Of a stretch of DNA of 64,000 nt, positions 3,699 to 57,960 are shown one piece after another. The DNA is from an uncultured Coriobacteriaceae bacterium (GTDB taxonomy: Bacteria > Actinomycetota > Coriobacteriia > Coriobacteriales > Coriobacteriaceae). The stretch is taken from contig CALUOP010000008.1 of NCBI GenBank assembly GCA_944322305.1, positions 1 to 64,000 on the forward strand, written 5' to 3'. Under the pieces are notes generated by a model that was not told the origin of the DNA, made no database searches, and saw only the letters and a program-made list of their open reading frames with translations. Position 1 is the first letter of the stretch. Each line of letters opens with the position of its first letter. A program made the translations under genes and the position numbers.

Positions 3699-3858
3699 GC
3701 AGGAGGACCACGGTCACGCGGAACGCCTCAAACCCTTCACCGAACGGCAACCCCCTGCGCTGGGCGGCGGTTGGGTGCTCTTTTGTCATCTAGGGCGCCG
3801 CTGCCCGCTCGAACGTTAAATAAGGATCACGTTGAACGCTTAAAGTGCAGGTAAGAAA

Positions 3859-4123
3859 CGGTTAGTCGTTGTTATCGCAGCTTAATCCCGGTTTTTCGGC
3901 AGTAGCGCTACGTTTGAACGACTAACTAGAATCTCAGCGACAAAATCGCGACCAACCGAACCACGTCGAGCCCTTGCCAGGCAGGTCCGCGACCAACCGA
4001 GCCACCCTGGCGCTCTATAAGTCAGATTCGCGACCAACCGCACAGCGGTGAAATCCTTATATGACAAAACAGCGGGCAATCGAGCGGCGACAAAGTCTTG
4101 CCAGCCGGATCCGCGGCCAACCG
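3859..4123. repeat. Phased repeat module, copy 1 (palindrome plus five inverted cores)
   Basis: The 549-base gap 3627-4175 has no gene. It holds a palindromic module: CGGTTAGTCG at 3859 and its inverse AACGACTAAC at 3917-3926 (10 paired bases, 59 bp between core starts). It is followed by direct copies of GCGACCAACCG starting at 3948, 3989 and 4030 and degenerate copies at 4072 and 4113. The steps from the right arm are 30, 41, 41, 42 and 41 bp. Intervening sequences differ, so it is not a simple satellite and not a CRISPR array (repeat too short, spacers unequal). Confidence 0.75.
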
Positions 4124-6044: not shown

Positions 6045-6571
6045 CCGGCCGCCCTCCTTCCAACGTCCTCACCCGCGCGAGCGGGCGAGAATCACAACCA
6101 TGGCAAACGCCCGCGCCCGCAGCTGAAGCTCCAAGCGGGCGGGAACGCGGGGTTATGGTCCCGTGCTCAAACAGCTTCGCCGAGACGGAGGCGACATTAA
6201 GTCGACTCCTTCGGCTGCAGAACTGAGCCAGGCCCTTATGCCCGCCCCTCCGCCACAACGCTGCCCTTCTCGGTCCCCACTCGCCGAGAACAGCTTTGGC
6301 AGCTACAGCCCCGCAGGGCGATCCGGGGCGTTGCGTCCGGGCGAGTTCTGAGCGAGCCTTTTCGCACGGCGAAGCCGGCGAAAAGACCGCGAGCGAGCAC
6401 GGGCTCGGATGCAACGCCCCGAACCGCCCGGCCAAGCCCGCGCGTCCTTCTCGCCCATGGTAACCAAAACCGGCGCGCCGCGGGTGACAGATCCGTCACG
6501 CGCGCGTCACGGGACGGCAAGGGGCGGGCGGGATGATGGTATCGTCAGACAGGACTCCGAAGAAGGGACGC
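6045..6571. other. Gene-free control region between response regulator and ABC transporter
   Basis: No gene is supported in these 527 bases. Two structures stand out. First, a nested inverted repeat: CGGGGCGTTGCGTCCG at 6324-6339 against CGGATGCAACGCCCCG at 6406-6421 (one mismatch in 16), enclosing a second hairpin CTTTTCGC / GGCGAAAAG at about 6358-6385. Second, GTGAC at 6484 with GTCAC at 6495 and 6506, eleven bases apart. A TATCGT sequence at 6539-6544 may be the -10 of the transporter. Confidence 0.55.
6484..6510 (+). promoter_or_regulatory. Candidate response-regulator binding site
   Basis: GTGAC (6484-6488), GTCAC (6495-6499) and GTCAC (6506-6510) make an inverted pair plus an 11-bp direct repeat. 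OmpR-family regulators usually bind direct repeats one helical turn apart, and the site lies some 35 bases before a possible -10, so control of the ABC operon by the neighbouring regulator is plausible. Confidence 0.4.
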
Positions 6572-13269: not shown

Positions 13270-13430
13270 GCGTTGCCCGCGCTTTTGTCGCCCAAGGGCG
13301 CCGTTGGTCTCACTTTTGTCGCATGAAAAGCGGTTACCCGTCCAAACTGCACGTAACTCCCGGATTTCCGAGAATTGCATGTCGTTTGAGCGGGTAACCG
13401 CATCTTAGACGACAAAAGGGCGATCAACTG
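13270..13430. repeat. Phased repeat module, copy 2
   Basis: The 361-base gap 13120-13480 has no gene. Left-orientation cores start at 13270 (GCGTTGCCCGC), 13301 (CCGTTGGTCTC) and 13331 (CGGTTACCCG); each of the first two is followed by CTTTTGTCGC. The palindrome pairs GCGGTTACCCG (13330-13340) with CGGGTAACCGC (13391-13401), again 59 bp from core to core. A further inverted core, GCGATCAACTG, starts at 13420, 30 bp on. The central part holds a weaker inner stem around 13354-13376. Confidence 0.75.
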
Positions 13431-46804: not shown

Positions 46805-47236
46805 CTAGTTCGCGAAGAAGTTCGCCAGGATGTCGGCGGTGCCCTGGCTGAAGGTGCGGTACGTCTCGCGATCCCAAACCTCGAGGCGGTCCTCGTTGCC
46901 GACGACCGTGACCTCGCGCTTGAGGTGCTTTTGCGTACGCGCGTCCTCCGGGAGGCTGATACGCGCGGCGGAGTCTATTTCAAGTGTGTTTGCCGCAGCG
47001 TACAGCGCTCGCCTCACCAGGATGTGCTCCTGCTTGGTGGGGTCGTAGCCCCCACGGGCGCGGAACACCGAATCCACCCAGTCACCAAAGGCGTCCTCAG
47101 TGAACACGTACAGAGCGTCGGCATCGGGAGCCGGCAAGACGAACACGCGCTCGGGAAGCTGCTTGCGCAGGGTTGCAGGCAGGGAGAGTCGGCCCTTTGC
47201 GTCGAGATTTCGATCGTAGGTACCGGAGAACTTCAC
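46805..47236 (-). CDS. mraZ: Transcriptional regulator MraZ
   Basis: 143 residues with two AbrB-like repeats: MKFSGTYDRNLDAKGRLSLPATLRKQL and SAARISLPEDARTQKHLKREVTVVGNEDRLEVWDRETY. MraZ is known in E. coli to bind direct repeats TGGGN spaced 10 bp in front of the cluster and repress it. The start is GTG with AAGGGGG eight bases upstream. TGGG boxes lie 138-160 bases upstream and a much larger array farther out (47724-47917). First gene of the division and cell-wall cluster. Confidence 0.96.
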   Translation of the reverse strand: MKFSGTYDRNLDAKGRLSLPATLRKQLPERVFVLPAPDADALYVFTEDAFGDWVDSVFRARGGYDPTKQEHILVRRALYAAANTLEIDSAARISLPEDARTQKHLKREVTVVGNEDRLEVWDRETYRTFSQGTADILANFFAN

Positions 47237-47723: not shown

Positions 47724-47917
47724 TGGGCGTGGGGCGCGGTGGGAGATACGGTGGGACGTAGTGGGAGATGCGGTGGGAGCGTGTGGGACAGCGACGCGTG
47801 GGGCGCGGTGGGAGATGCGGTGGGAGACAATGGGGAGCTGAGAGTGCCCTGTGGCTTCCTGCGGCACCGCCGGACCGCCCTGCGGCCCCACAGGGCGCCC
47901 CGGTGGGAGAACGTGGG
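47724..47917 (+). repeat. Array of paired TGGG boxes with 22-bp period
   Basis: TGGG starts at 47724, 47730, 47740, 47752, 47762, 47774, 47784, 47799, 47809, 47821 and 47831, and again at 47904 and 47914. From 47730 on they form pairs exactly 10 bp apart; successive pairs start 22, 22, 25 and 22 bp apart. A sample unit is GTGGGGCGCGGTGGGAGATA. The pair at 47904 (CGGTGGGAGAACGTGGGG) is nearly the same as the mraZ-proximal site on the other strand. Confidence 0.8.
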
Positions 47918-47996
47918 GGCGAGAGGAGCGGGGCGCGAGGAATGCGGGCGCGGGAGGCCGGGCGCTTGGGCGGCGCGAGGTTTGAACGACGCGGCC

Positions 47997-48706
47997 GCGA
48001 GCAACCGAGCGCACCCCCCGCTTGCGTGTCGCAGCGGCGGGTAACCGGACGAGCCTTTTCGCCTGGGCGCCGAATTCGCGAGCAACCGGAAAGGACCACA
48101 GTACTTAGATGCCGCTGCGGCGGGCAACGCGAAGTGACGGCGCCGGTTGGTCGCTGTTCCGACAGGGAGAAGCTCGGTTGGTCGCTATTTCGTCGTTGCC
48201 GGAGCGGTTGGTCGCCCTTGTCGCACCCAATTCCCGGAAATCCGGGAGTTGTATGCGGTTTGAGCGACCAACCGCTCCTTAGAGGTCGGAACAGCGTTCA
48301 ACCGAGAGCTTAGGTGACAAATCCGCGACCAACGAAGCGCGCTCCCCCGCTTGCATGTCGTTTCCGCGGACAACAGGCGCCAAGCTTGGAGCCCAACCGC
48401 CAAGATAGCGACCAACAGCCTGACCCGCAAACCTTGAACGTCGGAACGGCGGGCAACTGGAAAGAGCCGCGATACATAGATGTCGCCGCAGCGGGCAACG
48501 TGGGATAGCAGCGCCAGTTGGCCGCGGTTCCGACAGGGAGAGGTTCGGTTGGTCGCTACTTCGTCGTCGCAGGAGCGGTTGGTCGCCCTTGTCGCACCTA
48601 ACTCCCAGAAATCCGGGAGTTGCATGCGGTTTGAGCGACCAACCGCTCCTTAGAGGTCGGAACGGCGTTCAACTGGGAGCTTAGGCGACGTGCCCGCGGG
48701 CAGCTG
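47997..48706. repeat. Double copy of the phased repeat module
   Basis: Inverted cores (GCGAGCAACCG type) start at 47997, 48037, 48078 and 48120; left cores (CGGTTGGTCGC) at 48144, 48175, 48205; the palindrome pairs GGAGCGGTTGGTCGC (48201-48215) with GCGACCAACCGCTCC (48264-48278); inverted cores follow at 48294, 48325, 48366, 48408, 48449, 48491. Then the second copy: left cores 48515, 48546, 48576, palindrome 48572-48649, inverted cores 48665 and 48696. Segments 48103-48318 and 48474-48689 are a direct duplication at 371 bp. Confidence 0.82.
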
Positions 48707-48993: not shown

Positions 48994-50742
<1,749 letters not shown>

Positions 50743-56976: not shown

Positions 56977-57960
56977 GCCGAGATGCTCCCGCACACTCCG
57001 AAATCGATTGCAGATACAGCGCTATCCTACCCGAATCGCCCCGCGAAGTCGCGCCCCGGCTCCCTCAAACGGCATATCAGCCGCGGAAGCGGCAGGGCGA
57101 GAGGCGCGGTGCGGGGGCGAACACCGGCTGCAGCCCCGGTTGCCCGCGGTTCTGTCACGCAAGCGCACGCATGGATGCGACCTCGCGCCCGCTGCAAGGG
57201 TTAACCGCGATCGCGGCAGCTAACGAGAACAACGCGGCCGGCAGTTACCCGCGATTCCGTCACACAACGTTCAGTTTCCCGCGGTTCTGTCCTGCAGCTA
57301 CGGTTCGGTCGCACTTACGACAGATAGTGAAGACCACGCAGCCGGCAGTTAGCCGCAATCCTGTCACCCAGCGTTTGGCTGGCCGCGTTTTTGTCGTATA
57401 GCGGCGATTTAGCCGCAAACATAGCAGCTAACGAGAATCACGCGGGTGGCGGTTGGCCACTGATATGACAGGTAACGGGCAGTTGCCCGCGCTCTTGTCG
57501 CATAAGGCTTCAGTTACACGCACTTACGACAGCTAAGGAGCGGTTAGTCGCTCACACCGCAGCCAATTCCCGGAAAACTGGGAATTGGCTGTCGTCGGAG
57601 CGGCTAACTGGTTTCCAAACGACAAGATCGCGACCAACCGCCGCGACCTGTACGCACGCCTCCCCTCGCCCGCGCACCCAACCCAGCTCACAGAGCCACA
57701 CGCTCTTCGCCGGCCCGCACCGCCGCCCGAACGCAGGCTTCAAGGCGGCACCATTGTCGCACGCCCTCGCAACCCTCACCTGCACGCGGGTCTCTCCCCT
57801 TGCGTACCCAACTCCGCCGCAGCCCGCGCGCCTGGCCGGACACGCGTCAACACGCGTTTGTAGCAGTCGTGGCGATTAGCCAAAAACTTTCAAGTTAAAG
57901 TTTAAGGTGAGCTTTTCGGCTATACTGTCTCCAACGAGCAATCGCTGATTGGATGGTTTC
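56977..57960. other. Gene-free region between the LacI gene and the secreted RlpA-like gene
   Basis: 984 bases without a gene. From 57242 to 57640 it is filled by the phased repeat module (separate entry). The part from 57850 on is A+T-richer and carries TATACT at 57921-57926, a likely -10 for the next gene, with no good -35. Confidence 0.6.
57242..57640. repeat. Phased repeat module, copy with nine left cores
   Basis: Left cores start at 57242 (CAGTTACCCGCG), 57272, 57301, 57346, 57376, 57450, 57480, 57511 and 57541, that is steps of 30, 29, 45, 30, 74, 30, 31 and 30. Most are followed by a TGTC or TTGTCG. The central module starts at 57541 with the inverted core at 57600 (59 bp) and a perfect inner hairpin CAGCCAATTCCC (57560-57571) / GGGAATTGGCTG (57580-57591). 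Another inverted core, GCGACCAACCG, starts at 57630. Confidence 0.75.

What the first reader, a model, noticed from the sequence alone, without database searches (positions are those of the whole stretch)
47997..48706. Modular repeat with helical phasing and a fixed 59-bp palindromic centre
Cores of 11 bp (C-R-GTT-NN-Y-CGC) stand in one orientation at 30- or 31-bp steps, meet a palindromic centre, and continue in the inverse orientation (GCG-R-N-N-AACCG) at 30/31 and then 41/42-bp steps. The distance from the last left core to the first inverted core is 59 bp in every copy seen (3859/3918, 13331/13390, 48205/48264, 48576/48635, 57541/57600), and the next inverted core is 30 bp further in every copy (3948, 13420, 48294, 48665, 57630). 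Steps near 31 and 42 bp are three and four helical turns, so the cores face the same side of DNA. That suggests a multivalent protein-binding array, or an extended structured transcript. I know of no described family with this plan.
Basis: partly seen in the sequence, partly recalled or inferred. Interest (0 to 1): 0.88.

Follow-up and report, generated by a model that had tools for sequence, protein, structure and literature searches.

The report
Dispersed, helically phased palindromic binding-site arrays
About seventy places between genes in this bacterium carry the same mirror-image array of short sites set whole turns of the DNA helix apart, as expected if many protein molecules assemble side by side on one face of the DNA; neither the protein nor the purpose is known, and relatives carry similarly spaced arrays with different letters.

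Summary
The 48 kb pair belongs to a family of 66 aligned arrays (about 70 by profile) spread over a 2.35-Mb genome, all between predicted genes. Each is a two-sided array of units (A box CGGTTGSYCGC plus B box YGNCAYNYAAG) around a palindrome, CTCCCGGAAATCCGGGAG. A boxes sit at -35, -65, -96, -126 and their mirror positions; the 59-bp centre and the next 30-bp step hold in 63-66 of 66 copies. Other steps (19, 41-43, 52, 73, 82, 93, 104) fall on whole helical turns (best period 10.35 bp). Constrained columns average 90% pairwise identity, the least constrained 33% (near random); the arms show no compensatory change. This favours a multivalent protein-binding array over a structured RNA. It is not a standard REP/BIME: the genome's RAYT-like gene is flanked by other repeats. 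No Rfam, phage or plasmid match; 2 of 67 family genomes have it; two orthologous sites in a sister species lack it. Other genera carry arrays with different sequences and 51/52-, 61- or 71-bp steps; in one genus those units do covary as hairpins. Best reading: dispersed nucleoprotein-array sites, spread as blocks and kept by selection. Protein and function unknown.

The parts
48144..48304 (+). Array centred at 48240: left A boxes at 48144, 48175, 48205; palindromic centre; right (inverted) A boxes at 48264, 48294
   Evidence: highest-scoring copy of the family
48305..48420 (.). Outer inverted units of the 48240 array and the boundary with the second array (e.g. GCGACCAAC at 48326 and 48408)
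   Evidence: direct-repeat family D5
48515..48706 (+). Second array, centred at 48611: a local duplicate (371-bp spacing; 93% identical to the first over the 130-bp core)
47997..48090 (.). Inverted A boxes at 47997, 48037, 48078 (steps 40, 41) on the outer left of the first array, opposite in orientation to its left arm; perhaps part of an older, decayed array (inference)
48229..48252 (.). Palindromic centre, around AATTCCCGGAAATCCGGGAGTTG
3829..4123 (+). Array centred at 3894; A boxes at 3859 | 3918, 3948, 3989, 4030, 4113
13301..13430 (+). Array centred at 13366; A boxes at 13331 | 13390, 13420
57137..57640 (-). Array centred at 57576; long arm on the low-coordinate side (A boxes 57137-57541) and A boxes at 57600, 57630

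Best explanation
The element is one copy of a dispersed family of multivalent protein-binding arrays. SHOWN: each unit is a rigid pair of boxes (A, CGGTTGSYCGC; B, YGNCAYNYAAG, starting 16 bp after the start of A). Units follow each other at 30/31 bp, or at 41-43 bp with one extra helical turn inserted after the B box. Two oppositely oriented arms meet at a fixed palindromic centre. About 70 copies lie between genes with no preference for promoters, 3' ends or strand. Boxes are conserved while spacers are close to random. Copies have spread as blocks of up to about 330 bp, and one pair of copies differs by about one unit. INFERRED: a sequence-specific DNA-binding protein, probably a dimer per unit, binds the units on one face of the helix and assembles cooperatively outward in both directions from the centre. 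The resulting nucleoprotein filament or bundle acts as a dispersed chromosomal anchor (organisation or insulation of the chromosome) rather than as an operator for particular genes.
For: Copies and anatomy: 66 gap-free aligned copies with A boxes at -35/-65/-96/-126 and +24/+54/+85/+115; unit logo, with the B box fixed relative to A and the extra turn inserted after B. Helical phasing: steps of 19, 41-43, 52, 73, 82, 93, 104; best period 10.35 bp, R=0.64, n=137 for steps other than 29-32 and 60-62; one step per arm n=56, nR2=27 against a null maximum of 9.2. Selection on boxes: column variance 11 times binomial; 34 constrained columns 90% pairwise identical against 33% in the 24 least constrained, median one departure per copy. 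No arm covariation (within 0.582, between 0.592; 437 of 500 shuffles pair at least as well). No promoter, terminator or functional bias in flanking genes. Block dispersal, and a 31-bp difference between two copies. Other genera carry helically stepped arrays: 61/71 bp in g18, 61/62 with 42 and 83 in g49, 51/52 and 77 in g85.
Against: No binding protein has been identified. Copies are homologous, so their steps are not independent, and phasing could partly be inherited. Wrong-orientation sites also show some periodicity (R=0.46, n=69). The arrays are absent from the two orthologous sites checked in the sister species G003, whose genes are about 84% identical at one locus, and from G001 and G002; rapid turnover is odd for a housekeeping chromosome function. 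The genome has a RAYT-like gene, and its presence follows the arrays in the four genomes of the genus. In genus g18 the corresponding units do covary as hairpins.
Confidence: 0.5

Rival explanations
1. A mobile repeat population of the REP/REPIN/BIME kind: non-autonomous palindromic elements copied around the genome by a Y1/HUH transposase (RAYT), with box conservation reflecting transposase recognition.
For: Dispersed, extragenic, palindromic, lineage-specific, absent from orthologous sites. A few pairs of copies at different loci are 85-91% alike over the core, and one pair 85% over 332 bp. PF01797 occurs once in G000 and G003, which have arrays, and not in G001 and G002, which have none; it also occurs in G224, G286, G230 and G308, all with arrays of their own type. 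In g18 the units covary as hairpins.
Against: The G000 RAYT-like gene is flanked by different repeats (GGGTCAGATGGAACACGTCCCC type), not by array units, and R1 finds no array near it. The other RAYT-like loci read likewise carry their own unrelated short repeats, and R2 finds nothing there. No GTAG/CGTC tag, no arm covariation, ragged outer edges around a fixed middle, no target-site duplication seen.
Confidence: 0.27
2. Structured RNA or terminator-like element: the palindrome is transcribed and acts as a long hairpin.
For: Strong predicted folds in seven of the eight sequences tested (z -3.9 to -11.3).
Against: No compensatory changes; copy L072 folds little better than shuffles (z -1.75) although it belongs to the family; no orientation preference seen; no Rfam match; helical quantisation is a duplex-DNA property.
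Confidence: 0.08
3. Operators of a transcription-factor regulon.
For: Multi-site, helically phased operators are known for some regulators (own knowledge).
Against: 13 convergent and 41 tandem against 11 divergent gene pairs, in proportion to intergenic length; flanking genes are ordinary and functionally mixed; absent from most congeners.
Confidence: 0.1
4. Selfish or decaying relic of unknown origin (for example end-arrays of a lost transposon) without present function.
For: Lineage-restricted; no cargo gene seen.
Against: Decay would blur all columns alike; instead boxes stay 90% identical while spacers approach randomness, with a median of one departure in 34 positions.
Confidence: 0.05

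Closest known systems
BIMEs / REPs / REPINs with RAYT transposases (enterobacteria, Pseudomonas, Stenotrophomonas, Xanthomonas; PMC2817692, PMC3116915)
   Same: Extragenic, palindromic, dispersed, lineage-specific, arranged in regularly spaced arrays; BIMEs and REPs bind IHF, DNA gyrase and DNA polymerase I (PMC2817692).
   Different: Units here are not small tagged hairpins; arms do not covary; fixed centre with variable edges; step set in whole helical turns; the local RAYT-like gene has other flanking repeats.
BOX elements of Streptococcus pneumoniae (PMC3049150)
   Same: Modular intergenic repeat with a variable number of internal modules and many copies per genome (details from own knowledge).
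   Different: In BOX the ends are fixed and the middle varies (own knowledge); here the middle is fixed and the ends vary.
Dispersed chromosomal sites of nucleoid proteins (Noc, SlmA, MatP; PMC5540599, PMC3116907)
   Same: Many sites spread over the chromosome and bound by one protein (for the arrays: inferred).
   Different: Those are single short palindromes (own knowledge); here each site is an array with a median of about 8 units.
Plasmid centromeres and iteron arrays (sopC, parC, RepA iterons; own knowledge)
   Same: Tandem sites near whole helical turns that load a cooperative protein complex.
   Different: Typically one per replicon; here about 70 chromosomal, mirror-symmetric copies.

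Membership tests
REP/REPIN/BIME with RAYT | Small imperfect palindromes with a conserved GTAG/GTGG-type 5' tag | tested here: not met
   Unit is CGGTTGSYCGC-N5-YGNCAYNYAAG; no tag
REP/REPIN/BIME with RAYT | Genome encodes a RAYT (Y1/HUH) | tested here: met
   264-aa protein, PF01797 E=2.9e-14; NF047646 71.3 bits, below its cut-off of 80
REP/REPIN/BIME with RAYT | rayt gene delimited by two inverted copies of its cognate REP | tested here: not met
   Flanked by GGGTCAGATGGAACACGTCCCC-type repeats, no array units
REP/REPIN/BIME with RAYT | Palindrome kept by complementary mutations | tested here: not met
   G000 family: no covariation. The distinct g18 arrays do meet it
REP/REPIN/BIME with RAYT | Extragenic and dispersed | tested here: met
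   0 of 66 copies overlap a predicted gene
MITE with terminal inverted repeats | Sharp conserved termini and target-site duplication | tested here: not met
   Edges ragged, unit number varies, similarity of the closest pair ends inside arrays without a visible duplication
Structured RNA family | Rfam match or covariation support | tested here: not met
Helically phased protein-binding array | Site spacing in whole helical turns | tested here: met
Helically phased protein-binding array | Bound in vivo by a specific protein | not testable with these tools
   needs DAP-seq or pull-down

The most novel reading that the evidence does not exclude
Lineages of one bacterial order each carry their own version of a general element: a dispersed palindromic array whose unit step is locked to whole helical turns (3/4 turns here, 5 turns in g85, 6/7 turns in g18 and g49). 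A fast-evolving DNA-binding protein and its sites would co-diverge, forming dispersed nucleoprotein assemblies of a kind not yet described.
Probability: 0.3. Interest if true: 0.85.

Novelty: new variant of a known kind. Interest (0 to 1): 0.66.

Why it matters
If the arrays are protein-assembly sites, about 70 large nucleoprotein complexes sit along this chromosome without a known protein. They would offer a natural series for studying cooperative binding and phasing, since copies differ in unit number and step. The contrast between constrained boxes and near-random spacers gives a ready-made binding motif for finding the protein.

Tried and rejected
RNA-hairpin reading: rejected after the covariation tests. 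An early version used inconsistent copy orientation and was redone. RAYT mobilisation: looked good from presence/absence but the gene's flanking repeats are different. Regulon/operator reading: no bias in gene arrangement or in neighbouring functions. Phage or plasmid origin: nothing convincing. Empty-site alignment with G003: intergenic DNA too diverged to give exact borders. Literature searches found no description in this group.

Full report
WHAT WAS CHECKED. A DNA search of the window's own genome (G000, 2.35 Mb in 15 contigs) with the 48140-48346 segment returned 64 matches. Iterated position-specific scanning of fetched stretches gave 43 and then 66 gap-free aligned copies. A profile search of the whole genome lists a few more places, about 70 in all.

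ANATOMY. Relative to the symmetry axis, A boxes (consensus CGGTTGSYCGC) start at -35 (64 of 66 copies), -65 (63), -96/-95 (44) and -126/-127 (14) on the left, and at +24 (63), +54 (66), +85/+84 (43) and +115/+116 (39) on the right. A second conserved box, YGNCAYNYAAG, starts 16 bp after the start of A. When the step is 41-43 instead of 30/31 bp, the B box keeps its distance to A and the extra 11-13 bp lie between B and the next A. The centre is close to CTCCCGGAAATCCGGGAG in most copies. A median array has 8 units and spans 284 bp, with a range of 100-669 bp.

HELICAL PHASING. Adjacent same-orientation steps were 30 (187), 31 (104), 41-43 (53), 52 (7), 61-63 (37), and 73, 82, 93-95, 104 and others. 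Leaving out 29-32 and 60-62 bp, 137 steps gave R=0.64 with a best period of 10.35 bp. Because copies are related, one step per arm was also used: 56 steps, nR2=27.2 at 10.4 bp, against a maximum of 9.2 over 300 uniform controls scanned over periods. Sites in the wrong orientation show weaker periodicity. Background core-like sites in the rest of the window are sparse, about 0.6 per kb per strand, and show no such steps.

CONSTRAINT. Column conservation varies 11 times more than binomial. In the 130-bp core, 34 columns have a mean pairwise identity of 0.90 and the 24 least constrained columns 0.33, where 0.25 is random; the median copy departs at one of the 34. These columns were chosen by the same statistic, so the contrast is somewhat inflated, but the over-dispersion is not. 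Mean pairwise identity is 0.61 and the median nearest neighbour 0.73. This looks like boxes preserved while spacers have nearly saturated, not like uniform decay of a dead repeat.

NOT A CONSERVED HAIRPIN. Complementarity between the arms of one copy (0.582) is no higher than between arms of different copies (0.592). The formal pair count on alignment A1 agrees: 69.8% of cells paired, 437 of 500 shuffles at least as high. Predicted folds range from z -11.3 to -1.75. Rfam has no match to the element in the window, and nothing at the arrays in four further loci.

CONTEXT. With a simple codon-model gene finder written for this purpose, none of the 66 copies overlaps a predicted gene; 41 lie between tandem, 13 between convergent and 11 between divergent genes (one at a contig edge), about as expected from intergenic length. 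Of 94 neighbouring proteins scanned, no family stands out beyond ABC transporters. The pair at 48 kb lies between mraZ (46805-47236, -) and a glycosyl hydrolase 1 gene (48994-50430, -).

DISTRIBUTION AND DYNAMICS. Within the taxonomic family, 2 of 67 genomes have matches: G000 and G003. Two of the three G003 copies lie in stretches near-identical to G000: 98% over about 4 kb on both sides of the array, and close to 100% on one side of a breakpoint just outside the array where the other side is about 87%. This suggests recent exchange rather than inheritance. Elsewhere the two species' genes are about 84% identical at the mra locus. Two orthologous intergenic regions in G003 lack the array and are shorter. 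The most similar distant pair of copies is 85% alike over 332 bp, and another pair differs by gaps totalling 31 bp, about one unit. So arrays spread as blocks and gain or lose units.

SISTER ARRAYS. A class-wide search with the G000 profile gave two weak hits (E 2e-4 and 5e-4) in two species of another genus, g49. Searching those genomes with the hit region revealed a dispersed family there: CGCCGTTTAGG...CCTAACCGTTCGG units, mostly at 61/62-bp steps with some at 42 and 83. Its profile in turn reached genera g18 and g85. g18 has units TTCCGGACGGTTTG-N8-AAACCGTCCGGAA at 61 (some 59-60) and 71 bp, with on the order of 100 both-strand matches per genome in five of the eight species searched. g85 has arrays at 51, 52 and 77 bp. 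The g18 units do covary as hairpins, unlike G000. All share a CGGTT-like core, but homology between these families is not established.

MECHANISM. The rigid A+B unit, the quantised gap, the mirror-symmetric arms, the preserved boxes and the absence of arm covariation together favour cooperative protein binding on one face of duplex DNA, nucleated at the centre. That step is inference; no protein is known. RAYT-driven mobility is the main rival. A RAYT-like gene exists (below the NCBIfam cut-off) and its presence follows the arrays in four congeneric genomes, but it is bordered by its own, different repeats, the arrays have no REP tag, and the arms do not covary as REPs are reported to do (PMC2817692).

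LIMITS. The collections may leave out the own species. Gene calls are approximate. Helical steps within one family are partly inherited.

Noticed in passing
window 47724-47967: TGGG motifs at about 10-12-bp steps upstream of mraZ (46805-47236, -) resemble a long MraZ-box operator, with more repeats than the usual three or four (comparison from own knowledge; positions).
   Followed up: partly
L177-L208 (G224, G286): A second dispersed palindromic array family in genus g49, units CGCCGTTTAGG...CCTAACCGTTCGG at 61/62-bp steps.
   Followed up: partly
L218-L223, L239-L266 (mainly genus g18): Hairpin-unit arrays at 61 and 71 bp with clear compensatory changes, many units per genome.
   Followed up: partly
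L217:1384-1636 (G308, genus g85): Array of CGGGAAAGTCCGGACGGTTAGC-type units at 51/52-bp steps with one 77-bp step.
   Followed up: no
L230 (G000 C4:265 kb) and L229-L238: RAYT-like Y1 transposase genes, most flanked by their own short repeats (for example GGGGACTGTCCCC or GGGACAGTCCC types) unrelated to the arrays.
   Followed up: partly
L175:1800-1960 versus L095:3860: An insertion of about 150 bp flanked by TTGCAC in G000, absent from the otherwise 98% identical G003 segment; looks like a different small mobile element.
   Followed up: no
L064 about 3740-3780 versus L096: Identity between G000 and G003 jumps from about 85% to 100% just outside an array: a recent horizontal-exchange breakpoint.
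   Followed up: partly
window 6135-6257: A separate repeat of about 100 bp with more than ten matches in G003.
   Followed up: no
window 48994-50430 and G001-G003: Many glycosyl hydrolase 1 paralogues in this genus.
   Followed up: no
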